From the NCBI GenBank assembly GCA_030062745.1, contig CP099854.1:11000014-11064013 (forward strand): a stretch of 64,000 bases of DNA, given 5' to 3'. The position numbers and the translations under genes were made by a program. Positions within the stretch are counted from its first letter, which is position 1, and every line of letters begins with the position of its first letter. Positions 4,770 through 50,938 of the stretch are shown one piece after another. The notes beneath the pieces were generated by a model. The model saw only the letters and a program-made list of their open reading frames with translations, made no database searches and had not been told where the DNA came from. Origin of the DNA: Capitulum mitella (lineage: Eukaryota > Arthropoda > Thecostraca > Pollicipedomorpha > Pollicipedidae).

Positions 4770-5035
4770 GCGCAACACACAACCCTGCATGACGCCATAT
4801 GGGCAGGGGATGTAGAGCTGTTCCTGAACGGTGACTGACCAGTGATGTCATATCTGCAGGGAGATGTGGAACTGTCCTGAGGCAGTGAATGACCAGTGAC
4901 ATCATAGCCGCGGGGAGAAGTTCATCTGCTCCCAGGCGGCGACTGACCATTAACGTCGTTCAGCAGGGAGAGATGGAGTTGCTCCTAAGAAATGACTGAC
5001 TGGTGACGTCATATCTGCAGGGACAAGTTCAGCTG
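4770..5035 (-). repeat. Tandem array grown from the FBXL15 stop-codon region
   Basis: Three to four diverged units of about 50-60 bp lie end to end in the 3' UTR. Each repeats the end of the coding sequence (on the minus strand: TCCCTGCAGATATGACGTCA, covering the last codons and the stop) plus a CAGTC-rich spacer. The copy nearest the gene is the functional one; the outer copies at about 4850 and 4905 are variants of it. Confidence 0.6.
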
Positions 5036-5174: not shown

Positions 5175-8100
5175 CTGTACAGGAGGAGGGGAGGAGGGAT
5201 GGAACAAATCACACGTCAGTCTGGGAAGACGACCTGCGACGCATCACGCCATATTTACACCAAGAGCTTGCACATCATATGAACACACATGGACTGATCT
5301 TCACGTAAAAGATGTTACAAAATCTACATCCAACTGCACATACGCTTATTCTGTGAACACACACAATCTGATCATTACAATGAAGCCAGCGGCAAGACGA
5401 GGGCCCAGGATCTCAGAGACAGTGGAGCACAGCAAGGGACATTGGCAGACTGGCGCTTCGGTGGGCAAAACAGAGCCAATAACGAGAGCTCGTGTTCACC
5501 AGGGGCGGCTTTTGGTCCGACTCGTTGCGGGAGACGTTACATCAGCACATCAGCACATCAACGCCCCCCGCTGATGGCCTAATAACCTGTCCCCAGCCTC
5601 ATCACCTGATGCCCTGCCCTCCCCCAGCTGATCACCTGATACCCTGATCCCCCACCGGCTGATCACCTGACACCCTGATCCCCCCAGCTGATCACCTGAT
5701 GCCCTGGTCTGTAACGCGCCAGCAGCCTCGCAGCGAGAGCCGCCGGACCCGGCGGCAGTAGGAGGCCAACACGGCCACCGTCTGGTCCGTCACCGCGTAT
5801 ATACGCGACACGTCCACCTCCTCCAGCCTGTCGGAGGACGTACAGAGCCCTGTCAGAGACCGTCCGTTTGTTCCAGACTGTCACAGGACGAACAGAGACA
5901 TGTCAGAGGCCGTCCACCTCCTCCAGCCTGCCAGAGGATCGACAGGAGGGTGAGGCATTTACAAAAAGAAAATATGATCAGTGATTAATTTAGTATGCTT
6001 AGTTTAACATTTCTTAATATAAAGTTTCTATATCATCGTTTTACTGTACATTTCTAAAAATTTCAAGTTATACTATTTCTTAATATATAATTTCTTAATA
6101 TATAAGATAACTGAATTCAGCGCAAGGCCGCTAATTGGCCTAATTTGACCAAAAACCAGCATTTTCGTGGTCCATGAGCAAACCCTATATACTGTTCAGT
6201 TCTGCTAAAAATTGCTGTGTGCGCTTTCAGTGGTCAAATCATGGGAAAAACTTTGGTCAGCTGCAAGCCCTGTCAGAGGCCGTCCACCTCCTCAAGCCTG
6301 CCAGGGGATGTACAGAGTCCCGTAAGAGGCAGCCTGACTCCTCCAGCATCCCAGAGGATGTATAAGACCCTGTCAGAGGTCGTACATCTTCTCCAGCCTG
6401 TCAGAGGACGCAGAGAGCCCTGCCAGAGGCCGTACACCTACTCCATTCTGTCAATGAAAGTGCTGAGCGCCATCGGAAATGACATGCGGTATCCACCGAA
6501 GCACACCACAGTTTTTTAAATAAACCTCCAACAATGATGCAGTGGAATCCATTCGACCCCGGAACCTATTCCGTTCCCACCAGCAGAATCGGAATCAATG
6601 CCACTGACAAGTACTGGAATCAGAGTCAGTTAAGTTACGGCTATCTACGGAATCAGAACTAGACTCGATTCCAACGGCTTCATCCAACCAGTGTCCTTTA
6701 GCTGAATGCATTACGGACTTGATTTATTTAATTTCCAGTCGGAAAAGGCACAAATTGTTTTGGAAAACCTCGCTCAGTACGAACCAGAATTGATTTCGCA
6801 AGCCAGGAGTTTGATTCCAAATCACTTCCCCCAAAGTGGAATCAAACACAAGTCTGGATGCAGTAACCTGAAGCTTCTTCTTCGGTGGTCACGCACGAGT
6901 ATAAGAGTTCTAGTCCTACTGAGTGTAATCCTCCCACAGAGATCTACGTCTTAGTCTTGCCGCAGCTCCTCCGACAGGGCTATAAGATTACTGGGCGTTG
7001 CTCCGAGTGGGCACACGTTAAGTCCGACTGGGGCTGGTGCTCTGAGTGTAGACACACACAGTCTTACTGGGGCTGCTCGGAGAACAGTTCAGCCAGCGCC
7101 GAGTCGGCCACGCCCCAGCAGCCGGCGAGGTTCAGTCGGCGCAGGTGGCGCAGGTGCAGGTTCAGCACCTGGACGGCCGGCGGGGAGAGCCAGCAGCAAT
7201 CCTGCAGCACCAGCTCCACCAGGCCCTGGTGGCCGGGGCAGAGGCGGGTCACCAGCTGGTCACCAACTCACCACAACTCCACCAGGCCCACAGAGACTGA
7301 CCACCACAGCTCCACCAGGCCAAGGTGACTGGGCCTGGTGGAGCCCGGTGGAGTGGAGTGGAGACTGGTGGACTGGGACACTGATGAGACACCGACAGGT
7401 CGCCATAGTTTCACCAGGTCCATATCACAGGAACAGAGATGTGTCACCAGAGCACCACAAGGCCCTGGTCACAGGGACAGAGACAGGACATCACAGCTTC
7501 ACCAGGTCCCTGGTGGCTAGAACAGAGACAGGTCACCACAGCTTCACCAGGCCAGGTTCTGGTGGCTAGGACAGAGACAGGTCACCACAGCACCAGCGGG
7601 CCAGGAAAACTTCACCAGACCTTGGTGACAGGGCCTGGTGAAGGTAATAGTGATTAATATCGATATACCAAGAACTGTTGGAAGGGGAGGATGACCAGCC
7701 CTTAAAAGTTCACGTTTTCTGTGATGGGCACCAGATGGTCATATGCCATATGATATATGGCACATGCCATGACATATGTCATATGGCGTATGGTCATATG
7801 CCATGCAACGTCACATGTCTGATGCCAACAGTAAACAAAAAACCGGGGTATGGCTTGCGTTGGCCTGTTCGGTGACTGCTACTATCACGCGTGTTCATAA
7901 TGCATTGCTGCAAGTTTTACACGCCCGCACAGAACTACGTGAACTTTGCGGGCACTGCTGTACCTCACCGCATCTCACCGCTTCTCTCGCCTCGCCCCAT
8001 GAACGCCAGATCGGCACTCTAACCCCTGAGCGGCGCGGTCAGCGCCGGGCCAGGCGGCGCTCCGGCCTCACCTTGCACGACACGGCGATGGTCTGTATGA

Positions 8101-9441
8101 CCGGATTGCCCAGGCTCTGGCAGCCGGAGAGGTGGATACTGCGCATGCGCGGACTGCAGCCTATCAGGGGACGGACCAACTCGTCCGTGGTCCACTTGCA
8201 CTGGGAGAGGTCCAGCGAGGTCAGACCGCTGACGTGGTCCACCAGCACCTGCCGGGCAGGGGCAGAACATCACTGACGAAACAGGGGTGACCACTGGTGA
8301 GACCATCAGTGGAAGAGTGAAGAGGACCACTGGTCAGACCACCTCAGGAGGGCCACTGGTCAGACAATCACTGGAGGACCACTCATCAGACTGTCACTGG
8401 AAGAGTGAAGAGGACCACTTATCAGACCATCACTGCAGGACCAATGGTCAAATTATCATTGGAGGACCATTGGTCAGACAAAAACCAGAGGGCCACAGGC
8501 CAGACCACGACTGAGTGCAAAGGACCGCTGGTCAGACCATCAGTGGAGGAGGAAGGAGGACCTCTGATTGAGACCGTTTGACGGCAGTCGCCGGGCTGGA
8601 GGCAGACTCAGCCATACTAATCAGGGGCACTTCTAGCACATTTGGTCCTATTCAGTGCCATGCAAGTGCAGGCACCAGGAGTGCAATCATCATGTATGTG
8701 TATCCAGGAGTGATGAAGGCACATGTCATTGGATTCTGCAGCAGCAGCAGGTCATCATCAGAAGACCACAGATGATAGACTCAGCAGTGGAGCATGGGGC
8801 ACCTAAGTTGGGGAGGCACAAACAGGCTGGACAATAGTCATCAAGCTGGGCAAACGGCTTTCTGCTGGGAGCTCAGGACCTGGCTGAACCTATGTTAATA
8901 TTTTGAATCAGATACTGGGAAAAGAAGTGAGGTAACTTTTGCATCTGGGCTCCTGCAAGCTGGGAAACAGCCTGATATTTCAGTTTTCAGGGCACTGAAA
9001 TGGGGAAATAAAATCATTTACCATGGCTCAACAACTTGCAGTTCACAAAGTTTAGAGTACATGCCAGCTAGCATACATAGAGCACTGTGGCCTTCCTTTT
9101 TCTCAACAGTGATTAATTCCATGCCATAATACAAGTGAACAGATCCAGCTGTCTCATAAACACCACTGACCACCACACATCCACAGTCACACCACTGACC
9201 AGAACAGCAATACTGTTGGCCGTCAGTGTGCTATCTGGCTGCTGTCCCACACCTGTATGGCCTGACGACTGATGGCATTGTTCCCAGCCAGGTTGAGCTG
9301 CCGGAGCTGGCCTAGGTAGGAGTCCACTGCATCCCTCAGAGTACGACATGTGCCACGCACCAGGAACAGACAAGGCACTGAGAGGTGGCAGAAGATGTGG
9401 GAGAACAGAATGTCCTCCTGAGGCAGCTGCAGTAAGTGCAT
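5009..9441 (-). CDS. FBXL15: F-box and leucine-rich repeat protein 15 (jetlag-like), 5 exons
   Basis: Coding exons on the minus strand are 9441-9253, 8248-8072, 7225-7068, 5827-5696 and 5174-5009: 822 nt, 273 residues plus stop. Splice phases 0, 0, 2, 2 join cleanly with GT-AG borders. Residues 4-40 form an F-box (LPQEDILFSHIF, then a RGTCRTLRDAV stretch). The rest is a chain of cysteine-containing LRRs with 26-residue spacing. The ending (LEVTDC, then LNLSLQI at the stop) aligns with the FBXL15 ending LRVRHC...FVNLQV, which separates it from other FBXLs. FBXL15 family members are substrate receptors of SCF ubiquitin ligases; that role is family knowledge, with substrates unknown here. The protein is slightly shorter than human FBXL15 because it lacks the N-terminal extension. 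Exons 2, 3, 4 and the stop region carry tandem edge duplications. Confidence 0.88.
5580..5695 (-). repeat. Donor-side decoy array at FBXL15 exon 4
   Basis: On the minus strand the exon end and donor CAGGGCATCAG|gtgatcag is repeated three more times into the intron. Copied donors have their exon-like ends at 5667, 5636 and 5606, spaced 29-31 bp. Each copy keeps an intact TCAG|GTGAT donor. Confidence 0.75.
5696..5827 (-). CDS. FBXL15: FBXL15 exon 4 (LRRs)
   Basis: 132 nt, entered in phase 2 and left in phase 2 (ATC AG|gtgatc). It encodes LEEVDVSRIYAVTDQTV and RRLSLRGCWRVTDQGI. Decoy copies of both its acceptor and its donor lie on either side. Confidence 0.85.
5828..6460 (-). repeat. Acceptor-side 50-bp decoy array at FBXL15 exon 4
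   Basis: The acceptor plus exon start (minus strand GACAG|GCTGGAGGAGGTGGA) is copied into the upstream intron. Exon-like starts fall at 5877, 5927, 6297, 6347, 6397 and 6447, versus the real 5827. The step is exactly 50 bp except for one gap of 370 bp, which equals 50 plus a ~320-bp insertion. Several copies keep a good CAG|G acceptor (5927, 6297, 6397). Confidence 0.8.
5950..6265. mobile_element. AT-rich insertion splitting the 50-bp array
   Basis: About 320 bp of AT-rich DNA, unlike its GC-rich surroundings, interrupts the array and leaves the 50-bp register intact on both sides. It includes repeated TTTCTTAATATA segments. I could not define terminal repeats or a target-site duplication, so its class is unknown. 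Confidence 0.45.
6530..6870. repeat. GAATC/GATTC-rich interspersed repeat
   Basis: Dense in GGAATC, GATTCC and related words in both orientations. The same vocabulary appears at 17280-17470 and 18050-18210. No coding potential is seen. Confidence 0.5.
7068..7225 (-). CDS. FBXL15: FBXL15 exon 3 (LRRs)
   Basis: 158 nt, phase 0 in and phase 2 out, donor gtaaga. It begins GLVELVLQDCCWL. This acceptor was chosen because it keeps exactly 26 residues from the preceding LRR; the next upstream AG would add ten residues and break the spacing. Confidence 0.85.
7226..7640 (-). repeat. Decoy acceptor array at FBXL15 exon 3
   Basis: Diverged units of about 45-50 bp extend upstream (higher coordinates) from exon 3. 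On the minus strand they repeat the acceptor CTAGCCACCAG and an exon-like start such as GGACCTGGTGAAGCTGTG, matching the real CCACCAG|GGCCTGGTGGAGCTG. Clear copies lie near 7509 and 7555; others are worn. Confidence 0.65.
7740..7812. repeat. CATATG-rich palindromic cluster
   Basis: Overlapping CATATG, CATATGCCATATG and GACATATGTCATATG words, most of them self-complementary, fill about 70 bp within FBXL15 intron 2. The stretch could fold into alternative hairpins. No function is claimed. Confidence 0.5.
8072..8248 (-). CDS. FBXL15: FBXL15 exon 2 (LRRs)
   Basis: 59 codons in phase 0 between an acceptor ending GGCAG and the donor gtgagg. It encodes two LRR units, including LTSLDLSQCKW and MRSIHLSGCQSLG. 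It continues the frame of exon 1 without a stop. Confidence 0.87.
8249..8575 (-). repeat. Tandem array upstream of FBXL15 exon 2
   Basis: Repeats built on GGACCACTGGTCAGACCATC (and its variants) start right beside the exon 2 acceptor. On the minus strand they resemble the exon start GTGGACCACGTCAGCGGTCTG, so they probably also grew from the exon edge, but the match is weaker than at exons 3 and 4. Confidence 0.5.
9253..9441 (-). CDS. FBXL15: FBXL15 exon 1 (F-box)
   Basis: 63 codons, starting at the ATG at 9441-9439 and ending AIQ before the donor gtgtgg. Residues 4-40 are the F-box; the exon ends in LRQLNLAGNNAISRQAIQ. No in-frame upstream ATG was seen, and an upstream noncoding exon is possible. 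Confidence 0.85.
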
Positions 9442-13260: not shown

Positions 13261-13680
13261 TGCCTGACCTGACCTGACCTGACCTGACCTGACCTGACCT
13301 GACCAGATCTGATGGCCTGGCCTGACCTAACTTGACCATATCTGACCTGATCTGATCAGGTTGGAGTAGAGCAGCCTGAGAGTGGGCCTATGAGCTGTGG
13401 GCCTTTGCCCTGACACAACCTGCCATGGTCTGACCTGATGTGATCTGTCCTGAGCTGGCCTGACCAGACCAGACCAGACCAGACCAGACCAGACCAGACC
13501 AGACCAGACCGACCCGACCTGGCCTGACCTGACCTGACCTGACCTGACCTGACCTGACCTGACCTGACTTCCCTGCATGCTGCTGAAGCAGGACAGAGAG
13601 TAGGTCTGTAAACTGACCTGACCTGACTGGCAGTATGCCAGAGTGGGTCGGTGACCTGACCTGACCTGACCTGATGTGAC
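13261..13680. repeat. (CTGAC)n and (CAGAC)n pentamer microsatellites next to IKK exon 1
   Basis: Runs of CTGAC/GACCT at 13261-13305, 13520-13566, 13612-13626 and 13652-13675, and of CAGAC at 13463-13508. They run up to the exon that carries the IKK start codon. Long minus-strand open frames across this stretch are artefacts of the repeat. Confidence 0.85.
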
Positions 13681-13687
13681 GGGCAGG
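13628..13687 (+). repeat. Duplicate of the IKK start-codon region
   Basis: GGCAGTATGCCAGAGTGGGT at 13629-13648 mirrors the real GGCAGGATGCCAGAGCGGGC at 13683-13702, placing a second AG plus ATG CCA GAG 53 bp upstream of the true ATG. The copy loses similarity after about 20 bp and runs into CTGAC repeats. Confidence 0.65.
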
Positions 13688-13790
13688 ATGCCAGAGCGGG
13701 CGGGAGAGTGGGTCCGTGAGCGGGACATTGGCTCCGGTGGCTTCGGCACGGTGGTGCTCTGGAGCCACGTGGAAACTGGCGAAAAGATAG
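13688..13790 (+). CDS. IKK exon 1 (start, Gly loop)
   Basis: Residues 1-35. The ATG is chosen because it places the Gly loop at 15-22, as in IKK-beta (about 20). The AG just before it (GGGCAG) could be the acceptor of a 5' UTR intron. Donor gtgagg, phase 1. Confidence 0.88.
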
Positions 13791-16700
13791 GTGAGGTGTG
13801 ACTCTCTTTGTCTTGTTGGTCATGTTTACTGCTGTCACCTGTTTTTGACAAACTTTGGAAGTGAATATCACTTTTTCCGTGGTGGTAGAAAGAGATTTCC
13901 ACGAATTCTGCACCCATTCTTGTTTCATTGTCAGTTATTGTAGATACTGGTAACTGGTTATGCATGAATGTCACGGATGGTGATGACGTGACGCCTGTGT
14001 CGCAGCGATCAAGCAGTGTCGCTGGGGCGAGCCTGGGTCGGGCACCGAGACGCTGCTGGTGCCCAAGGTGCGGGAGCGGTGGCAGAAGGAGGTGGAGATC
14101 ATGCTGAAGTTGGACCACAGGTGAGCCGGCGCCGGTCAGCTGGTGGAGCCGCTGTTGGAGCCGCTGTTCAGGCCGATGTTGAAGCGGGACCGCACGCGGT
14201 AGAGTGTGACAGTGTTGCTGACGCACTGTTGGTCCGTTCCGGGGAGATTGTGACGTGTTTCGGCAGGACTGTGGCAGTGGTCTTGAGACGCTGGTGGTCT
14301 GTTCCAGGGGGATCGTCAGCTGCATGCCACTGCCTTCAGCGTTCCGAGTTGGTCCCGGGTCCCTGCCACGGCTCTGCATGGAGTACTGTGTCGGCGGAGA
14401 TCTCAGGAGGGTAACTACAGTCTGGATCCTCTGAGTGGAGTTCTGCATCAAATTGTACAGGAGTCCGTGGTTTTATATCCTGCCTGCTGTTGTTTGTCGC
14501 CCGTCATGACGTCATTTCCGCGTTAGGTGGCGACTTGTGTTGCCTTGTGGAACATTCTGTGAGATCCTTCATTCAGTTGCCTTCATTCCCGTACCTTTGC
14601 TCTCTACGCTCCTGCGCCGTCTCCATCGACTGCGTGAGTGACTTATTGACGTCATCGGTCCTGCGGTCTGCTCGCGCCGATGACGTCACCGTTTGGCGTC
14701 AGGTGTTGCTGAGCGCGGAGAACTGCTGCGGTCTGCGGGAGCTGGCCGTGCGCCGCTTCCTGAGCGACATCACCGACGCCGTCGGCTACCTGCACGGCCT
14801 GAGGATCATCCACCGCGACCTGAAGCCGGAGAACGTGGTGCTGCAGCAGTGCGACGGACGGGTCAGTGGCCGTGCGCGGTCCCCTGTCGGCTGGACCGTT
14901 AGGATGCGGCTCTGGTCCCCCGGTCTCCTACCACAGGGAGTCGCTGCCAGTGAGCAGGGCGCCGTGGGCCGGAAGGGCAGACCTCCGTGTGGATGTGGTC
15001 TGCCGGTCGCTGCTGCCTCAGATGGTCGCCTGAGCAGTTCGATTGACGTGCAAGGTGGTCAAAAGGCCCTAACAGGCCATTCCCGTGATCCACCAGGAGT
15101 TCAGACTAGATGATCAAGATGAGCAGAGCATTGTTTATTATCTTTGGGAAAGCAAGTGATTGTGATGTATCAGTGCTATCCCAAAAGTTTGCCAGGGTAA
15201 TGTCGGAGATCGGAGTCCTGCTGACCTCAGTTTGTTGCTCGGACCCTGAACCTTACACGGTGTTGGGAAGCACGAACAAACACCTGCCTGTTCGTGCGAT
15301 TTCAGGTAACAATTAATTTCGTGGTGGAATTTTAACGCGCCGCCAGTGGCACGACAGGACCGTGCGGTAGTCAGCCTGACCGTGTACTGGCCAGCCGTTG
15401 GCCGATGAGCGGGCTATATAATACATACAATGGTATATGTATTTGTGTATTATATAGTCCCCGCGCTATATAATATAAGAAAATACCGTGCACCGAGGCG
15501 GTTCGAGCTGGTCCTGTCCGGACGGAGAGAGCTGCCAGCCGGTCTGCCGGCCGCGGTACGGTACGGCCGCGGTACGGCCCGGGAGCGGGACCCGTCTGAC
15601 GCCGGCTGCCCGCCATCACGTCCGTCCGTGCCGGCAGATGGCGTACAAGCTGATCGACCTGGGCTACGCCAAGGAGCTGGACCAGTCGAGTGTGTGCACC
15701 TCGTTCGTGGGCACGCTGCAGTACCTGGCGCCGGAGCTGTTCCTCACCAACAAGTGAGCGGCCGGCCGGCGGCGCCGGCGGGCCAGGTGATGGGCCGCTG
15801 GGCGCCGTGCTGTGGGGCTCAATACGTTCTGCTGTACAGTTCGACAGTCACTTGGCTGTTACGTGGTGCCGCGTAAAAGGGTATTGTCGCGTGGGTACGT
15901 GCATGTGGTTGCCCACGTACCAACGTGTGTACGTCCTTAGTTTGCTTTGTTTAGAGGTCGGCGTGCTTTTTTAGAACTCCGCGAAATTTCAAATGAAGTG
16001 ATTGGAAGGGGATGCCGCCTACTCGTGCTGTTTGTAAAAAAATACCTCCTTTTTCGTTAGGTAGTAGCTTCGTGGATAGTAAAGCTTTCCCAACGATGAT
16101 GTTTCTGCTAAACACAAGCATAGTGTTTTCTACTTTGTGTTTTTTCTTCCAAATGAATGGATTTTCTATGTTTGTCAAATATTGTTTACTATCCTTTGTA
16201 AAAGCTTGTTATATGAACCATATGATGCATTTGTGTTGATTTTATTTATTTCACTCTGTGACGGAATTGGCTTGAGGGGACCAAATTATGGTGTGGCTGA
16301 CGTCTGTGACTTGGATGACTGTTATGTCCCAAATTACGTTTGATCTAACTGGCCTGTGATGTGGCCAACCCTTGACCTGACTAAGCCAATTGGCCAACTC
16401 TGGCGTGGATTAGGTGTGTGATGTGGCTGATTTACACGTACCCGGCTGATCTGTGCGACCTGGCTGACTCGTGTGACGTGGCGGACGCCTGTGACGTGTG
16501 ACGCGGTCGTCCCGTGTGGCCCGGGTGACGCTAGGGACCTGTTGACAGGTACACCTGTACAGCGGACTATTGGAGTCTCGGGCTCGTGGCCTACGAAGTG
16601 GTGACGGGTGTTCGGCCCTTCCTGCCCAACATGGTGCCCGCCAAATGGTAAGTCGTAGTGTTCGGGATCATTGTTGCTCCGAAATGCTTGTCACACGTTA

Positions 16701-19700
16701 CAATGAGACCTGTACTAGGTACAGTCCCACGTATTCACAGCCACCTGACCTGGGAAGGGTGAAATGTGTCTTTGGTTTTTCGTCATGCTGCAGCAGGCGG
16801 TGATCAGAAGAGCCGTGGTTTTCTCGTGTGCAGGACAGACCGCCGGTTCTGCTGTTTTCTCTGGTGTCAGCAGGCTGGGTCATCTGAGTTCAGTACAACA
16901 TTGCCCGGAATATACCGGGAGTTTGTGCTATCAGATGTGGAGTTTGCTGTCGGATGTCGGATGTGAGCCGGTAACGTTTCCACACGACGTTTAAACTGAC
17001 CGTGTTGCTTTGGTGAATGGTAGCAGTGTCTGATGCGGACTTGTGTAACGTTAATTTCTCCGCCATCTGCTGGAGACATGCGCTGTTGACGTTCTTCGTC
17101 TGTCCGCTAGGATGCAGCACGTGTCCCAGAAGGGTCCTGACGACATTTGCGCTGAGGAAATGGAGGACGGCTCCATCAGATTCCGCTCGGAAATTACCGG
17201 CTGCAACCACGTGTCCAGGTGCGCTGCCAGAAGAAAAGGAAGATTAATTAAGGGGCAAACTACCATCTGACCGACATGCCAGCGATTCAGAAACCAATCA
17301 AAATAGATTCTGATTCACGGGCTCTTTCTTTGAATCAGAATGCGAATCAGAATCAGAATCAGTTTACTGTATATCTGTGGATTAGAATCAGTCACCTTTT
17401 GGATCAAGAATCAGAATGGAATGGATTCACAGAGTTGATGGGAATCGATTCCCCGAGTCGATTCCGGAACCCTGGGTCATTTGAAAGCATGTTTTGTTTA
17501 CGTCATAGAGGACATCATTTTTACCAATATTTATTGGAATTGTCATGTGGTCTATCAGGACTTTCCAGTTATAATGCAATGCAAAATGAAATATTGTTTG
17601 TACCGTTGTCGTAGAAATTTGTACAATGTACACTTCAAATGAATGGCTTGGGCATAAGTTGATATGGTTAAAGTCTGCCCTAATGCTCATTTCTCTTCAC
17701 GATTTTCCGTTCCTATTTCATTTTTTTTATCGTGAATTGTAACTTTCGAAATGGATGTAAGACGCGTTATTTGTGGTTGATTTGTGGTCAACATTTCTGT
17801 TCTGACCATTGACCTCTGAAACCAAATTATATGCGTATCGGGATTTTTACATCTTGACACTAAACGCAAATTGAATTTGGACGCCGTTCCCCTGCGTAAA
17901 AATTTTGTACACGATATCGTACACCTGAGTGTTCCAGATACTACACTGTAATTTATAGCAGGCCATGGAATAACACAAAACCCAGGACTTTGCTGTTGCA
18001 TTTATGACGACAAAAAATACAAGGACGGTTTATGTTATTTCGCGTAGAATTGAATCGTGATTCCAATCGCGAACCACGAATCGAATCGACTCCTTGCAGT
18101 TAAAAATTGGCTTTGGTTCAGAATCGAATCGATTCTCTGTTTTCCAGTATGAATCAGAACCACCTTGGGCTGTGAATCAGAATCGAATCGGTTCCCGATT
18201 TCGTGAATCACTTACAAGTCTGCGCAACTGATCAAATGATATGCAGGACCTCTTTCCATAGCCATATCTCCATTCTCGTCCACCTTCAGCCGACCTCGGT
18301 CTTTCCGCAGTGTCCCACGCTGTCTGAGCTTCCTTGGTGTGTAATTGCTGTGACTTCGGCACAGGGAGAAGCGCAGTCAAAAAAGACGGTAGCTGTTAAA
18401 GCACGGGCTTTTGTTCAAGCCCAAACGGGGCATTCGTGACCGTACCCTCCCCCCAACAATGTTCCACTGACGTAATTTTGGTAGTTGTCATTAAGTATGT
18501 TTGATCCCCCCCACAGTCCCTTGAGGTGGTACCTGGGGCCATGACTCCCCCTCCACAGTCCCCTGAGGCGGTACCTGGAGCTGTGACTCCCCTCCACAGT
18601 CCCCTGAGGCGGTACCTGGAGCTGTGACTCCCCTCGACAGTCCCCTGAGGTGGTACCTGGAGCTGTGATTCCCCTCGACAGTCCCCTGAGGCAGTACCTG
18701 GAGCTGTGATTCCCCTCCACAGTCCCCTGAGGCGGTACCTGGAGCTGTGGCTGCGCCGGCTGCTGGACTGGGAGCCGCGGCGTCGGGGCCGTGATAGCGC
18801 CGACTCGCCGAATGTGGTGGTGTTCAGCCAGCTGCAGGAGCTGCTGCAGAGGAAGGTGGTCACCCTCTTCGGCGTCAGCGGCTGCCAGCTGCTGCACATG
18901 GAGATCACACACAACACCTGCATGAAGGACGTCCAGGTATGTTGGCGTGTTGGGGAGACTCAGGTGGGCGTGGTTTGTCCCGTTCAAAGGCTGGGACGTC
19001 AATGAACAAAAATGGACGATATACGGGTTACAAGAAAAGTGGGGAGGGGATGAACAGACATTTGTGACAGTTCCATGGATGCTGTGCCATGGGACTGATG
19101 TTAAGAAAGCAAGAAACTCCATTTCATTTGTACCCAGATGGGGCAGAATGCACTAGCTGGTATGCTTTATGTCACACAAGTTAGACATGATGTTGTCTGG
19201 TGGACAGTAGGCGTCAGCCTCCTCGGTAACTCAGCGAATAACAGGCGTTTGCATAATGTAGTGGTTATCACGTCCGCTTCACACACGGAAGGTCACCGGT
19301 TCGAATCCGGGCGGGAACAGGGATCTCTCACTGCTCCTTGCTGGCAGGAGTGAATCTGTCACCATTAATCAGCCGCCCGAACGGTTTACCCCCTCAGACA
19401 GAGAACTACCCGTTGCTACATTGTCATTTAGAATGTCCCACCTTTAACACGCGTTTTGAGCTGAGATTGCCGACGTGTGGTCTACCCGATTACTCCTCTG
19501 TCAGGCAGAGATCGACAGTCTGCCAGCCCTGTGACAGACAGTCATTCTGGCGTGCTGTGGGAACGGTGTTAACAGTTTGCTTACTCAACGACTGTGGCAG
19601 TTTTCACACAAATTTGCATCTCCAGAATTAAAGAACTCTGTTTCCGCCCGGGATCGAACCGGGGACCTTCCGCGTGTTAGGCGGATGTGATAACCACTAC

Positions 19701-34954: not shown

Positions 34955-35012
<58 letters not shown>

Positions 35013-38000: not shown

Positions 38001-41000
38001 AGTAACAAAAACTCATAAATTTCCGTCGGTCAAAATAAAGTGAGCAAAATCCATCGAGAAATCCACATTTGGGGGAGGCTAGGGTGTCGGACTCTGGGCT
38101 CGCCCCCCCCCCCCAATCAGTCACAGAAATCGACGCCCCTAGTTGGTGGGTAGAAAAAAGGAATAATATCACGTGGAAAATATCACTGAAACCTTTCATT
38201 GATATCCTACCGCATGACCTGCCAAATTTTCGGGCCAAGATCACGCAAGATCACGGAGGAAGGGCAGGTCAAAGTTAAGGTCCATGTGTAAACTGACGCG
38301 GTCAGGCCCCAGCTGGACTGGAAGATTTGCTGGAAATTGTAGTACTAAGATAAGCAACGAGTAAAACATGATGCACCAAACAAAATCAGATAAATTTTGT
38401 CATTTCTTATCTATTGGACTGCTCAGGACAAGGTCTTTGAAACCGTTTCAAGGTTGTACGTTCCTTCTTTAAGTGAATCTATTTGCATGGTTTATTTGAG
38501 GCATGATTTTCATAAGAAAGTTTGTTTCACCCACTAGCCGATACAGTTTCGTTGCATTTAAAAGTATTTCTATCTGAAAATTGGTCTTGACCTTAATGCC
38601 GATCTTGACCTTCGCCGGTGACATTTACCCCTTGTCCTGCTGTGCGACTTTTTCGGCAGCACTTCGGTAAGGTTTAGAACAGTGTCGTGAGAAAAAAAAC
38701 ACGTTTCTCATCTTTGGAGTATCCACGGATGTTCAATGGTGGAAGCCTCCGTTTTTTTTTTTTAACTCCGCGTGCCCTGTAATGTCATCTGTAACGTTAA
38801 ACACCAAACACCATACAGTTTCTGGGAGTTCTGATTGAAGGCTATCTTTTACAGTTTTAGTTATTTCGATCAGCCTGGTACTTTCGAAGTAAGCAGGGGT
38901 CCAAAAAAAATAGTTTTCCGCCGAATGGCGTAGTTCTAAATACGCCAGCGAATGGTGAGTTAACAGTCGGGGTGGCAATTAAAGTTAACCGCTAACCGGA
39001 CCTTGTTTAACAGATACGCCGAAAAGCAGTCACAGAGATGCCCCACTTTTCCACCCTCCTCTGACAGACCGACAGTCAAATAGCCACAGAGCCGCCCGAC
39101 TGTTCCGCCCTCCTCAATAAGTTCCCCGGAAGTGTGTGTGCCTAGACTGAGGCGATTATGCCCATACAACGACAATGCATTCAATTAGAGTAAGGAGGCT
39201 GGTTAGAGCAGACTGCGGACCTGCTCGTGTATGGATCATTAGCTCAGGTAACAAGCCAGAGACGTGTTACACGGACGATCAGACGGCAGGCCTCCGCCGC
39301 CTTGGTAGCTCCTTTGTGGTCATCTGTTTCCGTAGTGTAGTGGTTATCACGTCCGCTTCACACGCGGAAGGTCCCCGGTTCGAACCCGGGCGGGAACATG
39401 GTTTTCGCTAGAGAAAGGCTATGGTGGCGCAGTCGCAGCCATCGGTATTGACAGAGACGTTACATAAGTCTCCTTACCTCATATGTCCGTTTTCAACGTC
39501 CTGCATTACATTGAAATTGCAACCGTCCGTCTGGCCTGTCATGGCAGGAGGATGATGTCTGATATTTGAAGTGACGACGAGAGCTGACTTCACCGTTCAT
39601 GTGGCAGTGGTGTTATCAGTCTCGAGAAACGAAACGACGTGTGACATCATCGGTGATGTCAGAGGCCAAGGGACAATGGGTCAACTAACGTGGGACAGAT
39701 TGCCCCCCAAACTGTCCTGTGGGGTGGCTCATGGTCATGGGTTAGGACGTCAGGGACATGGACAGCACAGTACGGACAAGACCACGTGGCAGTTGACAGT
39801 GCGTTTGCGGGACACAGAGCACGCGAAGTGACGAATCTGACTCCGTGAGTGACAGTTGGCATCCAACAGTCGACCGTAAAGTATCAATGCACAGTTTTCA
39901 GTTCCTTGTGCGTTGTGTGGCTCACCACGAAGCCATGGTAAATTTTTAGCGACAGTGCCATCTTCCCACATCCAAATGCTCTCTGTGACAAGGTCCGGCA
40001 TGCCAAGCCGTTGCGTTCTTCGGTGTTTCAAACGTTTATTTACGAAACTATAATGTTGCTCTGTCTTCGCCACAACTAGAGTTCCTCTTCTGTGCAGTGC
40101 CCTGCAGTAATTTTTGGCATCCACCCAGATCATCTTCACAGATGGAAAGACAACGCATAGGCCTTACAGATCTGACCATCCATGCCGACGCCAAGCTGAA
40201 CCCAAGTAAATGGAAACAAATAATAATGTAAACAAAGCGCCAGAAGAATGCATGTTGATTTAGTAATAATCTACGTAGATTCGTTGTTTACCGTCCTGGG
40301 ATTTTTCAGCGATCACTTGTGGGCGTAAATATACGGGGATTTTATATTTGATCTTCTGATAAAAGTTTTCCGTATGTTGTTCGGTGAAGTTGACAGTAAC
40401 GTTTGACTGATATTTCAAGTCCGAATTAGAAATCAAAACTAAGCAAAACTAATGTAGATAGGACCGGACATCCGGTGTCGGCAATAGTTAACAATGGTTA
40501 AAAATCCCTTCAACAAAAGATTTTTCTGGACAGATTTGGCAGACCGTAGCAGACAGAAATTCATCAAGATATTTCACGTCACATTGTTTGTGACACTGTC
40601 CCGAAGGAAAATGTCGAAAGGACGCCGTTAATTTGTTGTTTTGAAACTCTTATTCATTTTTCCCGTTCAGCCTTTTTACAGATATGCACAAGTTTACTTT
40701 TGTAACACGTGGTCGTTGTCATCGATATTACGAGACAGATGTTAGGAGCTGTCGACACATACTGTCAGCTTGGTGCGTGTGCACTCCTGTATCGGAAAAT
40801 ACAAAACATCACACCTCGCTGATGAACGCGGCCGTCGTGATATCTGCTGTCCAGCCCATCGTGTAACCAGGTGTCATGGACGATTTTAGCATAAAAGTTC
40901 GTGTCGCAGAAGTTCGTCGGACTCCAGTTCGTCAGACAAACGTTCGTCGTGCGTAAGTTCGTCGTGGAAAAGCCCGTCCGTCGTGGAAAAGTTCGTCTGG

Positions 41001-44000
41001 GAGAAAAGTTCGTCATACAAAAGTTCGCCGTGAAAAAGTTTGCTTAGTGCAAAAGTTCGTCGAGGACAAACGTTCGTCTTGCAGAAGTTTGTGTAAGGCA
41101 AACGGTCGTCTGCGACGAAAGTTCTTCTCGCAGAAGTTCGTCTAGGACGGAAGTCCGTGTAAGGCAAAAGCATACATGGGGACAAAGTTTCTATAGGACA
41201 AAAGTACGTCATCCCGAATCATCATCTTCATCACAGAAGTTTGTCCAGAACAGGAGTTCGTCAGGTGCAAAATTTCGTCCAGGACAAGTTCGTCTCGCTA
41301 TTGGAAAAGGTTCGTACTGCAAAAGGTTCGTATGGAAAAAGTTCATACTGCAAAAGACTTGTATAGAAAAGGGTGGTAGGAAAAGCTTCGTAGGAGAAAG
41401 TGTTCGCAAGGAAAAACCAAAAGTTCGTAGACCTAAGGTTCGTATCGGAAACGGACCTTAGCCTAGCCTGGCCTAACCTAACCTAACCTAACCTAATCTA
41501 ACCTAACCTAACCTAACCTAACCTAACCTCTTTGTTGGACCGAACCGAGTCCGATCGCACCGTTTACTGGCCTGCGTCCTCTAGTATCCCGTAGATCCTA
41601 GTATATCTAGTACCCTATAGATTCTGGTATATCTAGTGCCCTGTATGTACCGCGCCTTCGGTGCAAACCCGGAACGACTTTTCCGATACGAACCTTTGTT
41701 TACGAACCTTTGGCTACGAACATTTTTCCTTACGTTATGAACCTTTTTCCTACGAGCGTTTTCCATACGAACCTTTTCCAGTTCAAACTTTTTGCGTCAC
41801 GAACCTTTTCTGGTAAGAGCCTTTTGGCATACGAACTTTTTACCATACGAACCTCGTGAATACGAGCCTTTTGCTACGAACCTTTTCCCATACAAACCCT
41901 AGACTTCGAACCTTGGTCTGATTGCCCTCTCGCCTGTAACTCGGGCACGTTAATGCGCTGCACAGTGGCTTGAGTTAGATGTGCACGCGTTGGAATGCGA
42001 TCAGTTCTGGATCCGGTCATGAGGAATCAGAGCTTCATTATTCAGCATGATTCCATTCCATTCCATTCCAGCTGTCGTCTGGCAGTTGGCAGTTTTTCTT
42101 GGCTACACGTATATTGTCCTGAATCACGTTCGTGCAAGAACCATATGACATAGAATCTTCTTTCCTGGACGAACTCTTGCCCTAGACAAACTTTTGGTCT
42201 AGACGAACTTTTGTCCTAAACGAATTTCTGCCAGAGGATCTTTTGTCCTCGACAAATTCTTGTGCTAGACGAGCTTATGTCCTAAACGAACTTTTGTTGG
42301 ACGAACTTTTGTGCTTGACGAACTTTTGTCCTGCACGAACTTGAGCGATACGAACTTTTGTCCTAAACGAATTTTTGTCTTGGACGAACGTTGTCCATAC
42401 GAACTTTCGCGAGACGAACTTTTGCCCTAGACGAACCTTTGTCTGACAAACTTTTGTCCGTACGAACTATTGTTGTCTATGACCCACTGTCCTACGAACT
42501 TAACTCCAACGAACTTCTGCCCGTAAACTTCGTAGACTCAGATTGGACCATCGGGCGCATCTTTCCTTTTACACACCTCACTCTTTGGACAGGATCGGGG
42601 TTGAATGCTGTTAGCCTCGAATGCAATCGGTAACCCAGGCATGAAACAGGTCAGATTGCTGTAGGACGGCAAGGTTTGTAGAAACATTCAAACAAGTAGC
42701 AAAAAGTGGCCAGCACTGTTTGACCCGAAACAGAAAGGGTCAACCAGATCACGAAGCGGTCATGTCGTGGTTTTGGCGGCACGTGAGAGGTCCCTGAGCA
42801 TCATCTGGTCCGTTGCCTGGGGCAGAATTACTCCATGTTTGGGTTCACTCGGGCGGCGTAGTTTGGGTCTGTGCAACAAGCTCCGCTTAATAAGACGTCG
42901 GATCCCAATGCCGCCCACGTCAGAAAGATTCGGATCAAATTTACAAAGGTGAAATCACTCATTTATGACAATGAACAATACCAGGTGCGCCAAACGTTTA
43001 AAGCTGTAGTTCCTCGCGTTTAAAATGACGAAGTACATCGGCGAATTTCTGCATTGGAATACATCGACTGTTTCCGCATTAGTAAATGTGTCAAATAGAA
43101 ATTAATGTGGCAGATACTTTCATATGCTTCCGAATGCGAAGAGCAAAGCGTTAGATGGCGCTCGTGATATCTCAGACAAACGTCTGCCGGATGGTGTATC
43201 GAGGCTGTTGTTGGCTGAAGTGTGATGTATTCTTTTGAGGCTTCCTCAGTTCTGATGTGGCCCCCGTAACACTGCTGGGACCCGAAGCTTAGACAACTTC
43301 TCAAGCGTTCGGTCTGATGACGTGTTTTATCTAAGTTGGGGTGGGAGACAGCAGTAGGAGATACGTGCCGAGCAACCTCTCTCTGTGTTTTGCCACCGCC
43401 GTGGCCTGTTGGGTAACGAGCCGGACAGCAGGGTGCGCTATATGGCAAGTTCTGCCATTTTAATTTTAGAACATATATTTTTTTTAATTTTTAGAACATA
43501 ATATTGCCACCACTCCCTAAAGATGGTCTGGCCAAATACTCTCCCATCATGTGCCACGAATTGTTTGTACCATGGAAGAACTAGTCCTCTCCGGGACTGG
43601 CCAGTTCGCGCCGGTTGGTTGGTTATTGGGTTCTCGACTGCCTAGGCTTTCACGATGAGAGCCCTGAAATTCGTTGCCACAGTGGACGGCGAAATGCCAT
43701 AAATTTGCCACAGCGATATCATGTCATAGATTTGTCATGTGATAATGTCATAATTATGTGCCACCTGTCTGGCACTGACCGGAGGATGCCTTTCTGTTGT
43801 GTGAGTACCGGTGGCGGTGTTGGTGTTTGGCGGCAGACGCTGACGCAGCTGTTGGTCGGCAGACGTTCGTGGCGCGCCAGACGGGACTGGAGGCGAGTCG
43901 CCAGGAGCTGCGGCTGCCCAGGGGTGACCAACCCAACACGGCCCCGGACCAGTCGGCGCTGCAGTGCTGGGCGCCGCCGGAGGTGGGACGCCCCTGCAGC

Positions 44001-47000
44001 GGGCGCAGGCGGGCTCGCGGCGGGGGGAGGGGGGACGGTGGCAGGAGTGGCCGCTCTTCACTACTCCGCCGGATCGGAAGGCCCTGAAGTGAAGGATTTC
44101 ATCGGCGGAGTGGTGTGGCCACGATTAGCCCCGGAGTCGGCTGTTTGGGCTGTTGAAATGTGGTGGCCTCCAGATGTCTTGGTGTGCTGCTCATAATTAA
44201 ATAACGTGATCGCTTACTTGGATGCTGAGAACTGATCTGGAATGTTGCCGCCCAAAGCTGTAGATGTGTGTTGTTGCTGTTGGAATGCGACTCAAAACCC
44301 ATTTGCCGTTAATCCATCTTGAAATTTAGTGTTGGGCGATTTTTTTCTACAGCCTTGCAAGTGAAAAATAAAAAAAAATCGTTTGGACACAGATCGTGTT
44401 GTGAGTTTAGTCGTAGTCATTGTTGTCGTCCTCTTTGCGATTTTGCGATACCGTCACGACATTTGGGATCGGGACACGGAGTGGGTGGTGTACGTGTTTG
44501 ACCTGTGTCCTGCTGTCTGTCCGTGCGACATCAGGAGGAGACGGAGTGGGTGGTGTACGTGTTTGACGTATGTCCTGCTGTCTGTCCGTTCTACATCAGG
44601 AAGAGACGGAATGGGTGGTGTACGTGTTTGACCGCGCCTCGCCGGCGGCCGCGGGCTCGGCCGAGATGCAGCTGCCGCCGCTCGTGCTGGAGATGCTGCG
44701 GGACACGGAGAACAGACCGGCCTACTACAGGCAGGTGGGTGGCCGGCGCCGCTGTCACGGCTCGACTGATGGGCGGCCGGCCGGGCCGTCAGGCCGACCC
44801 CGTCCGCCCGCCGCCGGCGTATCGCGACGTCTGACAGCACCTGCCTCAGCACTGGGAGCCCTCAGTGCTCAGAGGGCTTTGCGTGTGCTGTGAAACGGAG
44901 TGTCGGCGTAGCAGGCTGCGAATTGGAATTGTTGAAAAGTCCGCGATGTTTTGAAAGTTTCTGGAATGCATGATGGCCTGGTGACGCCAGCATGATTCGG
45001 GCTGTTGTTTTTTTTTTTGATATGAGACCCATGGTTGATACAGTGGTATTCATCAGTGGCATACCCAGCGTGGGCGAATATATCGTGAAAGGTCTTCATT
45101 ATCGTTTTTGTTTGTACATTTCTGTGGTTTGTTTAGTATTTGCCCTGACGTTTGAGTTTCGTTGTCGACAGAGACTACATGTTTAATGAGAGCCAATAAT
45201 TTTGTTGACGTCTTGCTTGTTAAGTCATATTTTGAACGCTGTTTGCATGTCTGCTTTTTGGGCCGGTTCGGACTGTGAACGGGTATATCATGAATAAGTA
45301 TTTGCTGATGCGAGTAGAATGCGGCCCGTGAATCCCACTGAGATGAAAGCAGAAACTATCGGACGACCTCCTGTCACCCTTTGTTGGTCAGCCTCAGGTT
45401 CTGTTAAGGTCTGTCTTTATACATGATTATGTTCAAGGGGCTGCGCGTTAGAACTGACATTCCTGATTTGGTCGACAGAGGGCAGTGTACGGGCAGTCGG
45501 TGTTCCTGATTCAGCAGCAGACGCGGCTGCTGGCGCTCCTTCAGAAGGCGCAGCACGTTCACATGTGAGACGAGGAAGCTGCCAGACGGCCTTCCCCAAA
45601 CCGTTCAGTATGGCCGGGTAGTCTGTCGCCCCGTGGACGATACGTGTGTATTTGTACTGTGTTGTTGCGTGTTCGTCACTTTGAAAACTGTGATTGGTCT
45701 GGTTGTTGTTTGGCTAGTGCTGTTGCCCTTTCCCCCCGCCTGGTTCATTTGACAAGCAGTGCTGTCGACAGTAATGTGTTGTGCCGGCTCTTTGGTGACC
45801 TGCATATCGACGCCGACCTTTTGTACGAGGACAGTGGGGCGTTAACGGTACTCCCGCGGTGTCATATGTCGGCACTGATCTGTTCCAGTGACCGATCCGT
45901 GACCGATCAGTGACCGATCTGTCCAGTGACCGATCGGCGCCGGGGGTCTGGTCGGACCTCGGCGGGCGGACGGAGAAGCTGACCTGATGTCGCCGGTCGG
46001 CCCTGACGCATCAAAACCTCCGTCCGTCTTTGGCGGCAGGTCTCATACTGCTGCAGTGTGCTGGTTCTGTCTGACTGTGGCTTCAGCTTGCCTGCGGTGA
46101 CGTGTTTTGGTCGGTGGTGATGACCGTGAGTGACTTTTGGTGACCTGTTGTAACCTGTGCTTACCTGGTCATGACAGGAAGGGACCGGGGCTCTGAAGTC
46201 CAACGTTTTCAGTCTGTTAAGTCTGACACGCCACAGCCTTTGTTCACTCTTGCCAGTGTGTTTGTACTTACATGAAGTATCCGTGGTGATCTCAATTGAC
46301 ATGTGGATGGGAGGTCGGCCATGTTGGTGCCACGTTCTACCTTGGCCACTTTTGACCCCTTCTGATCTGTGGCCTGTAGGGATCTGTGACCGACAGCATG
46401 GTGCTGTCCGGCTCAATGTTTCATTCGAAACAAATGTGGCTCCCTTCTGCCCTGTGCTATGAGATACCCTCTAGTGGTTATTGACGTGAAGTGGAATGTA
46501 GCTAGAGGCGATCGGCTGCGATCGTAGTTAGGTGGTGATCTTCAGTGACGTTTAAATGACCTGTGACTTCATCCTACCTGGTCCTTGTGTGACCCCATGC
46601 GACCTACAGTGACCGTGAGTGACCCGTGACCAACAGGATGGGCTGACCAGTGCCATGTCGCACCTGAGCCGAATGTGACCCTGTCTGACCCGTGGTGACC
46701 TGTGACCGGCAGGATGTGGCTGGCCAGTGCCATGTCACACCTGGGCCGGAGGTGTGAGGTGATGAAGTGCGACCTGGCCCGACTGCAGGCCGCCTCTGAC
46801 CTGTTCCACTCGTCCCTCGGCTGGGACGACGAGCTCTACAGCCGGCAGGCGGCCGGCGGCGGCGTCAGTGAGTGCCCGAACTGACCGCACTGCTGCCATC
46901 TGTGGACGACAGCGAGCACTTTTGTTACGTAGGATTTGCCTCTGGTCGTTTCGACGCTGCACTGGCGCCGTTTATGCAGGGACAGCATTGTGTTTTTCCC

Positions 47001-50000
47001 TCAGATTTGTGTGTTCCCAACGCTGTCTTCACCAACGTGCATTGGGAGGATATGACTCGTTGGAAATGTTTTCAAGGTCGAACTTGTTGAGTGGCTTCAG
47101 CCATCAGTGGCAAAGCAAGTACCTAAGCGTTGTGATCGAATCCAGTGCACGACGATGCAACCGTCCCTACCCTTTGATCCACGTTCCATCACTTTGTTTT
47201 CGTGCGTGCATTTACAACCGACGCCCATCGTTGCTGCAGCTACCATCGATTACCGACAAACGTCACCACTGGTGCTGCCATCTGCTGGCAGCACACGTCG
47301 CACTAGCTGTCACACGTGTCGTCAGTCCTCGCCATCAGTGGCGCCACCTATTGCCGACCGGCGTAACCTGTGTTTCAGCGTCGGCCCGCGTGTACAGCAC
47401 GTGGCAGCAGGCCGGCAGCCAGGTGCGGCGCCGCCACCAGCAGGGCCACGACAGGGTGCGCCAGCTGTCGGCCTCCGTGGCCGAGGTGCTGCGGCGTGGA
47501 ACCGAGCTGCAGCGCGTGCCCGGCAACAGGCAGAAAGCCGACGGCTTCTCCATGTAGTGAGTGACGCAGGGAGCAGCAGGGGCGCCTCGCAGGATGACTG
47601 GCCACCCTGCGTGGAGGGCAGTTGGAGACCTTTGTCACCGGAGACGATGTGTGGTCCACTGAGCTGAGAAGCTTTGGCTGCTTTGGTATAGGCTTCAGGT
47701 GGTCGCTCCGTGGGAGAAGTTAATGCTCCGTGACGTGAAATGAGGAGTCTTGGCGTGGGATGTTCCGAACTTGTCGGCGCGGCTTAAGCTGTACGTGTCG
47801 TAGCTATTTTCGTCTCTATTGTTTCCCGACATCGGTACGAAACACCTACTACGGGCTATGGAACTGCAGTCGATCCTGGACTAGTGACACTGCTGGTGAG
47901 GACACGGAACTGGTGCGGCAGATACATTACCTTCATACACACCGGTCCCTCTCGTTCGTTTCCTAAGAATTGTCTTCGGCATTTGCATCTTTGTCAATCC
48001 GTATCCGTGGCGTGCGCTTCTTCTGTAATCTGACCCCCTTTTTCTCTGTCATCTTGTCTCCGTGGCGTATGTCCCACCGGTGAGCTGTCCTTCCCCACTC
48101 CACGAGTGATCTGTTCGTCACACTTGCCTGTCCACCGCCGACGCCCCCGTCTCCGACCGCCAGCTACGAGAAGGCGTGCGAGGTGTACGAACTGCACCGG
48201 CGGCGGCCGAAGGAGCAGCGCAGCCAGCGGACCAGCAACGCTGAGATGATCCGCATCGTGGCCAAGTTCATCCGCAACCGGGACAGGCCCTTCAGCGACG
48301 TCTACGAGATGATCGGGTCAGTGGGGCCATCGGCACCGTCCATGACCGAATCTGCGGCTGCGAGTTACTGTGGTTGGAAGGCTTATGCAGTTGAGGAAGT
48401 TTTAATGGTGGTGTGATAAGGCCAGTGTAAAGTGGACTGAGGACGGCCGGCGTTTGGCGTCATCTTCCTCTTCCCTGTCTTCTCTAGTCCTGTCTGCTGG
48501 GCCAGCATGCCGCTGTCCCATCCTGTCGTGTCCCGTCCTGTCTTATACAGGAGACAGTAGGAGGTACAGTGGGAGGTGGAGGAGCTGTCTGTGTCTGATG
48601 GTTTCCTGGCGTGTACAGGAGACAGCAGGAGGTGGAGGAGCTGTCTGTATCTGATGGTGTCCTGGCGTGTACAGGAGACAGCAGGAGGTACAGCGGGAGG
48701 TGGAGGAGCTGTCTGTGTCTGATGGTGTCCTGGCGTGTACAGCAGACAGCAGGAGGTACAGCGGGAGGCGGAGCTGTCTGTGTCTGATGGTGTCCTGACG
48801 TGTTCAGGAGACAGCAGGAGGTACAGCAGGAGGTGGAGGAGTTGTCTTTGTCTGATGGTGTCCTGTGCTGTTCAGGAGACAGCAGGAGGTACAGCGGGAG
48901 GTGGAGGAGCTGTATCGGTCTGTTGAGGAGGCCGTTCAGAGTCTCCGTCACTGCCTGGAGCTCATTAGTCGCTATCAGAAGCAGCGACAGGCTGACATCT
49001 GGAAGTTCATGGGGCTCGTGGTGAGTTGACACAGAGGGCTTCTGCATAGGGAAGTGAGTCTCAGAGCAAATGCTCTGTTCCGTGTGATAGTGCGTGTTTC
49101 GGAGTCCCGAGGAACTCTCGGCACAGCTTCTCACTGCGTCTTGCGTTGGACCTTAACCACCGTCTACCTGGGCGGAACTTTGGAAAGTTTGTGATTAGGC
49201 TCGTGTCTCATATCTTCTCCATTGTCGACATCAGCACTTTTCAGGATGCATTTTGACCACTACTTGCCTTTAGACCCCAGATATCATACACATGAAAAAT
49301 CGGGCTTCAAGCTTTTGATCAAGCTTCGGAACTGTTAATTCTATGTTTCGTTTAATATTTTTGAATATATTTCTGTGCGAATTGAAGTGCAGTCTCATTT
49401 GTACAACTGATGGGCATCAGCGTTCAGGTATCATGAGCCATGCTTCTTCAGGCACGGAGCGAGTGTTTTTGAACTGGGGCAGTGCTACGAGCCGTTCCTA
49501 ACGAGTGGCTTCCTTCGCTGTCAACAGCTGCACGCTAGTGTTCCGGCGCCGCCGCCGCAGGGGCCCAGTGACGCCACCAGGACGACTCCTGACGTCACCA
49601 GGGCGGTGGCAGACGCGGCGGCCACAGCCGGTAGGCTTCTGAGGCGCCGAGACAGATTCGGACCGAGCTGTTGGCGGCCGCAGCTGGCGAGGTCTGGTCT
49701 GGTCTGTCAGGGCCACCTGTGATATGTGGACATTGTTTGGTTCAGTGTCGGGCTGAGTCACCAGTGGCAGTGGTGCGGTGTGTGGTTCAGTGTCTGGCTG
49801 TGACTGTGGTGCAGTGTGTAATTCAATGTGTGGCTTGGACAGTGGTGTAGTGTGTGGTTTAGTGTCTGACTGTGACAGTGGTGAAGCGTGTGGTTCAGTG
49901 TCTGGCTGTGACTGTGGTGTAGTAGGTAGTTTAGTGTTTGGTTGGGACAGTGGTGTAATGTGTGGTTTAGTGTCTGGCTGTGACAGTGGTGTAGTGTTGG

Positions 50001-50938: not shown

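What the first reader, a model, noticed from the sequence alone, without database searches (positions are those of the whole stretch)
5009..50938. Exon edges of two neighbouring genes are tandemly amplified outward, producing arrays of decoy splice sites
In FBXL15 (exons 2, 3, 4 and the stop region) and IKK (exons 1, 3, 8, 10, 12, 15), short tandem duplications straddle the exon border, so the intron or UTR holds extra copies of acceptor or donor plus the first or last 15-40 nt of the exon. The best cases keep usable AG or GT sites. Most unit lengths (41, 50, 65, 68, 76 bp) are not multiples of three. Null model: short tandem duplication is common in this genome, and only copies falling outside the reading frame survive. 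The alternative is that decoy acceptors tune splicing or feed nonsense-mediated decay. I know of no description of such arrays as a recurring feature of a gene pair.
Basis: partly seen in the sequence, partly recalled or inferred. Interest (0 to 1): 0.82.

Follow-up and report, generated by a model that had tools for sequence, protein, structure and literature searches.

The report
Splice-site-spanning minisatellites in an arthropod
Short stretches of DNA that cross exon edges have been copied head to tail into neighbouring introns, leaving spare splice sites; this is real and recurs in other genes of this arthropod genome, but it has been described before in amphioxus and looks like ordinary repeat turnover rather than a special control device.

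Summary
Units of 41, 50, 65, 68 and 76 bp were found. The genes are an 18-exon IKK and a 5-exon F-box/LRR (FBXL15-like) gene. The interpretation mostly fails. (1) The pattern is not peculiar to this pair: copies occur at 11 of 174 exon borders sampled elsewhere in the genome. (2) Enrichment over introns is weak: 19 of 216 borders against 11.9 expected, p about 0.03; not significant in the window alone (0.14) or outside it (0.07). (3) Decoy AGs are not significantly better conserved than the rest of the unit, and stops after decoys are hardly commoner than after other intronic AGs. (4) The same anatomy is in print for amphioxus as 'mirages' (PMC3087553, PMC3902484). What may be new is the host: an arthropod (150 cuticle-domain matches, a lower bound), by karyotype perhaps a thoracican barnacle. 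My searches of the held library showed no report in arthropods. Best explanation: recurrent minisatellite duplication, tolerated where the copy next to the exon body still gives the right mRNA. Use of the decoys cannot be tested here.

The parts
18505..18749 (+). IKK exon 8 acceptor array: five upstream copies, about 41 bp apart, of acceptor plus the first ~29 nt of the exon (true border 18723)
   Evidence: all 5 decoys keep AG; all 5 run into a stop after 8 codons
44472..44633 (+). IKK exon 10 acceptor array, 65-bp units (true border 44600)
46623..46760 (+). IKK exon 12 acceptor, one copy 76 bp upstream; a weaker one lies 316 bp upstream, outside this stretch (true border 46713)
48535..48913 (+). 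IKK exon 15 acceptor array, five upstream copies 56-68 bp apart (true border 48876)
14228..14322 (+). IKK exon 3 acceptor, one degraded copy 65 bp upstream, AG lost (true border 14308)
   Evidence: not detected with exon-only probes
13630..13710 (+). IKK exon 1 start-codon region and one copy 53 bp upstream (ATG 13688, copy 13635)
   Evidence: score 13, below the swapped null's 99th percentile of 14
7200..7640 (-). FBXL15-like exon 3 acceptor array, about 49-bp units, several degraded (true border 7225)
5811..5938 (-). FBXL15-like exon 4 acceptor array, 50-bp units, near cluster (true border 5827)
6266..6445 (-). FBXL15-like exon 4 acceptor array, far cluster of the same 50-bp unit
5591..5706 (-). 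FBXL15-like exon 4 donor array, 27-31-bp units with about 11 nt of exon (true border 5696)
4790..5023 (-). FBXL15-like stop-codon region, 54-bp units running into the 3' UTR (stop ends at 5009)
8289..8479 (-). Array near FBXL15-like exon 2 that does NOT include the border (true border 8248)

Best explanation
These are 'mirage'-type minisatellites. Short segments (about 30-76 bp) are repeatedly duplicated in tandem in this genome. Where a segment crosses a splice border, start or stop, the product is intron-exon-intron-exon, and the copy joined to the rest of the exon still yields the normal protein, so the allele survives; duplications running into the coding body would change the protein and are removed. 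The duplicated exon pieces, with AG or GT, then drift as intron. Shown: the anatomy, its recurrence in other genes, and copies ranging from identical to badly degraded. Inferred: the duplication process itself, that normal splicing ignores the decoys, and that decoy transcripts, if made, mostly end in premature stops. On choice of site, I think it most likely that sequence in the exon body beyond the duplicated edge (exon definition) lets the authentic copy win; that is inference.
For: Recurrence outside the pair: 7 of 88 acceptors and 4 of 86 donors. Ages vary: a near-perfect 66-bp duplication (by eye) across a MEK-like acceptor (L062), a 69-bp x 4.7 array at 98% at a CDK-like donor (L047), and degraded copies elsewhere. 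Border rate close to intronic rate: window 8 of 42 against 12.3% (p=0.14), outside 11 of 174 against 3.84% (p=0.074). Decoy positions -12 to -4 are 67-84% identical to the true copy, positions 0 to 14 are 76-100%, as expected if only the true exon is constrained. The window is repeat-rich: 10.1% of bases in such repeats against a mean of 4.1% in 20 stretches of 10 kb that I placed across the contigs, range 0-18.1%. Same anatomy in amphioxus, with globin RT-PCR suggesting undisturbed splicing (PMC3087553, passages).
Against: A modest excess at borders may exist: 19 of 216 against 11.85, p=0.034; window acceptors alone 7 of 21 against 12.3%, p=0.010, a subset picked after seeing the finding. Acceptors exceed donors 14 of 109 to 5 of 107, p=0.052; with an exon-only probe at score 15 it was 9 of 61 to 0 of 61. 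0 of 30 scored decoys are open and in frame, against 65 of 662 ordinary AGs, which could hint at selection against harmful decoys; but the L062 copy, outside that set, reads in frame and open for 22 codons by eye. The intron side is not uniformly more diverged: positions -20 to -16, covered by fewer copies, are 91-100% identical.
Confidence: 0.8

Rival explanations
1. Decoy acceptors are functional: they compete for the spliceosome and divert part of the pre-mRNA of IKK and FBXL15 into transcripts with premature stops, setting protein level.
For: 31 of 34 aligned decoys keep AG; in 5 of 10 acceptor loci examined at least one decoy is as strong as the true acceptor by a position matrix, 12 of 31 decoys in all; 28 of 30 lead to a stop, 0 of 30 stay open and in frame.
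Against: Decoys are on average 3.2 bits weaker than the true site, and the same call counts only 8 of 31 above the 95th percentile of ordinary intronic AGs. AG columns are not significantly more conserved than the rest (p=0.067); ordinary intronic AGs give a stop in 568 of 662 cases. Arrays also occur at donors, at the stop and start codon, and away from exons, and at borders of other genes.
Confidence: 0.08
2. Exon edges are preferred seeds: because the exon copy is kept intact by selection, arrays there are re-seeded again and again, so new copies are born next to the exon and older copies are pushed outward and decay.
For: GSK3-like paralogues L034 and L037 have an array at the same acceptor; identity to the exon falls with distance in L034 (100, 82, 74%), and the far unit of L034 shares a changed stretch with the near unit of L037, suggesting an old shared unit and newer copies next to the L034 exon. 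Weak overall border excess.
Against: One gene pair only; in IKK exon 8 and L035 identity does not fall steadily with distance; ordinary unequal exchange also leaves the end copy most diverged (recalled). The excess over introns is small.
Confidence: 0.25
3. Assembly artefact (false tandem copies).
For: None seen; reads were not available.
Against: Units in most of the nine arrays aligned differ from each other by substitutions and small indels, and the coding frame of both genes is intact across the array-bearing borders.
Confidence: 0.02

Closest known systems
Amphioxus 'mirages' (Adh3, globins BflGb6 and BflGb9, PGBD5; PMC3087553 and PMC3902484, passages seen; the original Adh3 report is only cited there; the DOI I recalled for it was not held)
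   Same: Minisatellite-like tandem duplications that include an exon-intron boundary; both 5' and 3' borders; many but not all copies keep AG/GT; unit lengths there 10-72 bp (Adh3), 60 and 108 bp (PGBD5) and 150-160 bp (globins), here about 27-76 bp.
   Different: Host here is an arthropod, not a cephalochordate; start and stop codon regions are also involved; no RT-PCR or polymorphism data here.
Internal tandem repeats at exon-intron boundaries of human segmental duplications (PMC2812944, passages seen)
   Same: Minisatellite expansion at exon borders, with possible new introns.
   Different: There they change transcripts of recent paralogues; here the reading frame of the two genes is unchanged.
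Intron gain by tandem duplication of splice-site-bearing segments (PMC4974935, PMC2891723; search listing and start of abstract only)
   Same: A tandem duplication carrying a splice site sits in a gene.
   Different: No new intron or exon is shown here; the existing border is copied outward.

Membership tests
Mirage (boundary-spanning minisatellite) | Tandem repeat whose unit contains an exon-intron boundary | tested here: met
Mirage (boundary-spanning minisatellite) | Can occur at 5' and at 3' exon borders | tested here: met
   14 of 109 acceptors, 5 of 107 donors
Mirage (boundary-spanning minisatellite) | Many, not all, copies retain AG or GT | tested here: met
   31 of 34 decoys keep AG; FBXL15 exon 4 donor copies 3 of 4 keep GT
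Mirage (boundary-spanning minisatellite) | Normal splicing despite the copies | not testable with these tools
   No RNA data; none of 30 scored decoys gives an open, in-frame product
Mirage (boundary-spanning minisatellite) | Length polymorphism or somatic instability | not testable with these tools
   One assembly only
Regulated poison splice sites (splicing coupled to NMD) | Splice signals of the decoy conserved beyond neighbouring sequence | tested here: inconclusive
   AG columns 64 of 68 against 1046 of 1211, p=0.067
Regulated poison splice sites (splicing coupled to NMD) | Decoy use introduces premature stops more than chance | tested here: inconclusive
   28 of 30 against 568 of 662 ordinary AGs
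Regulated poison splice sites (splicing coupled to NMD) | Detectable regulated transcripts | not testable with these tools
   No RNA data

The most novel reading that the evidence does not exclude
In this arthropod lineage boundary-spanning minisatellites are a genome-wide, exon-anchored process: about 6% of exon borders outside the window (11 of 174) carry outward copies, exon edges act as protected seeds that keep founding new arrays (about 1.6 times the intronic rate), and splicing tolerates many near-identical acceptors. A second, independent origin of the amphioxus mirage would make recurrent raw material for intron gain and exon sliding measurable.
Probability: 0.25. Interest if true: 0.6.

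Novelty: new member of a known kind. Interest (0 to 1): 0.42.

Why it matters
Arrays with several near-identical acceptors in front of one exon are natural experiments on how the authentic 3' splice site is chosen, and boundary duplications are a proposed route to new introns. Finding them repeatedly in an arthropod would mean that the amphioxus case is not a lineage oddity. For annotation, the decoys are a source of false exon starts: my own splice-site picker chose a decoy for one GSK3-like paralogue (L037).

Tried and rejected
Amphioxus as host: suggested by the mirage literature, dropped. No GFP-family match was found (which itself says it cannot show absence); the genome has 150 Chitin_bind_4 matches, a lower bound, and CCTAA/TTAGG arrays in the window (none in the 20 sampled 10-kb stretches). 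The 16 contigs of 45.5 to 18.3 Mb are close to Capitulum mitella (16 chromosomes, 45.43 to 19.66 Mb; PMC8416341, passages), but the total here is 477 Mb against 463 Mb there and 512 Mb in another assembly (PMC11331182, passages). Species not proven.

Acceptor-only bias: strong with an exon-only 36-nt probe (9 of 61 against 0 of 61 at score 15), but reduced with a border-centred probe (14 of 109 against 5 of 107, p=0.052), because donor copies hold little exon. Not claimed.

Selection for AG in decoys: not supported. Stop-codon design in decoys: not supported. IKK paralogue for comparison: none seen; other kinases match at 29-47%.

Rows dropped or added before the counts: one donor (L014) was dropped because its 'exon' is itself a minisatellite by eye; with it kept, and before the eight loci, the figures were 19 against 11.3, p=0.023. 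L033 and L043 overlap, so two acceptors had been counted twice; they were removed (the figures with them were 11 of 176, p=0.078, and 19 against 11.9, p=0.036). The weak L004 and L020 donor copies and the L028 acceptor copy, which has no AG by eye, were kept. The L037 acceptor was moved by hand from the decoy to the homologous position. In one search one L006 distance was mistyped, so that copy was not scored; acceptors L028, L047, L062 and IKK exon 3 were not part. Exons outside the window rest on Pfam kinase matches, codon usage and a splice matrix, not on annotation; three of the eight acceptors have poor matrix scores and were still counted. Control points overlap and are not independent. 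The 20 stretches were placed by hand, not by a random generator.

Full report
What is there. The window lies at 11.0 Mb on the smallest of 16 contigs of a 477-Mb genome. I rebuilt both genes. IKK runs on the + strand in 18 exons from the ATG at 13688 to the stop ending at 50938, with GT-AG introns and one open frame of 761 residues; it matches solved IKK-beta over residues 4-664 at E 1e-122. The FBXL15-like gene runs on the - strand in five exons, 9441 to 5009, with F-box and LRR matches.

The copies. Eight borders or ends carry clear outward copies of the exon edge: IKK exon 8 (41 bp, five copies), exon 10 (65 bp), exon 12 (76 bp), exon 15 (56-68 bp apart, five copies), FBXL15 exon 3 (about 49 bp), exon 4 acceptor (50 bp, two clusters), exon 4 donor (27-31 bp) and the stop region (54 bp). 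Two more are single, weaker copies: the IKK start-codon region (53 bp upstream) and IKK exon 3 (65 bp upstream, AG lost). FBXL15 exon 2 is not confirmed.

Is it more than chance? As sequence copies, yes: testing each border against flanks of other genes, the threshold of 16 was reached in about 1 of 2932 acceptor trials and in 0 of 2847 donor trials. As a preference for borders, barely. With a 36-nt probe centred on the border, the window gives 7 of 21 acceptors and 1 of 21 donors, against 12.3% for points in its own introns (n=908). Outside, 82 acceptors and 79 donors gave 6 and 5; one donor (L014) was then dropped by eye as non-coding, two acceptors counted twice in overlapping loci were removed, and eight further kinase exons gave 1 of 8 and 0 of 8. 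Final: 11 of 174 outside, against 3.84% for non-coding points within 800 bp of coding sequence (n=4146), p=0.074; window 8 of 42, p=0.137; together 19 of 216 against 11.85, p=0.034. The control points are not independent of each other and the window was chosen for this feature, so I treat this as at most a small excess. The exon-only probe gave 9 of 61 acceptors and 0 of 61 donors; with the border-centred probe the acceptor-donor difference is 14 of 109 against 5 of 107, p=0.052.

The window is repeat-rich: 10.1% of bases lie in such repeats against a mean of 4.1% in 20 stretches of 10 kb spread over the contigs (range 0 to 18.1%). Arrays also lie away from exons, for instance in intron 8 and intron 16 of IKK.

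It is not peculiar to the pair. Copies occur at GSK3-like (L034, L037), CDK-like (L047, both edges), another kinase donor (L055), MEK-like (L062) and other exons; these gene names are recalled from the translated residues, not tested beyond the Pfam kinase match. They span ages: L062 is a near-perfect 66-bp duplication whose decoy reads open and in frame by eye; L034 has one unit 50 of 50 identical and others at 82% and 74%.

Do the decoys look functional? In nine arrays, 31 of 34 aligned decoys keep AG, but the two AG columns together (64 of 68) are not significantly above the other columns (1046 of 1211; p=0.067). 28 of 30 AG decoys would lead to a stop and none stays open and in frame; ordinary intronic AGs at similar distances give a stop in 568 of 662 and stay open and in frame in 65 of 662. 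By a position matrix, 12 of 31 decoys are at least as strong as the true acceptor and 5 of 10 loci have such a decoy, but on average decoys are 3.2 bits weaker. So some decoys look usable, but nothing in the sequence says that they are kept for use. How the true site wins is not shown; I infer exon definition by the exon body.

Two GSK3-like paralogues (exon 94.9% identical) both carry an array at the same acceptor, and the far unit of L034 shares a changed stretch with the near unit of L037. This suggests an old array plus newer copies next to the exon in L034: one case, not a rule, since IKK exon 8 and L035 do not show a steady decline with distance.

What is known. [quoted passage not shown] Human segmental duplications show repeat variation at exon-intron borders (PMC2812944, passages). 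The host here is an arthropod by its 150 cuticle chitin-binding matches; chromosome number and lengths resemble the barnacle Capitulum mitella, which is inference. In the held open-access library my searches listed no report of such arrays in arthropods, as far as titles and abstract starts show; a tandem-repeat survey of Daphnia does not use the words splice or exon-intron in its main text (PMC3152781). Subscription papers are not covered.

Verdict. The extension to an arthropod, at about 6% of sampled borders outside the window, is the part worth keeping.

Noticed in passing
55876-57123 (-) and 39750-40163 (-): Two C-type lectin reading frames: the first of 415 residues matching Lectin_C in two stretches, the second of 137 residues matching it once.
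   Followed up: partly
41472-41529: Interstitial array of CCTAA, the arthropod telomere unit TTAGG (recalled), inside IKK intron 8.
   Followed up: no
21408-21785, 32831-32955, 60579-60709: Similar-looking minisatellite units at three places, by eye perhaps a dispersed element family.
   Followed up: no
40893-41415 and 41739-42459: Imperfect arrays of about 15-17 bp units (AAAAGTTCGTC..) and, further on, by eye apparently their reverse complement.
   Followed up: no
L034 and L037, acceptor at 1003 (in the reading sense): GSK3-like paralogues with boundary arrays at the same acceptor and a shared changed stretch in their units.
   Followed up: partly
L062, positions about 234-364 (reverse sense): Near-perfect 66-bp duplication across a MEK-like acceptor; by eye the decoy is in frame and open, so its use would insert 22 residues.
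   Followed up: partly
50860-50938: IKK ends in IDWSFLN, resembling the vertebrate NEMO-binding motif (recalled, not tested).
   Followed up: no
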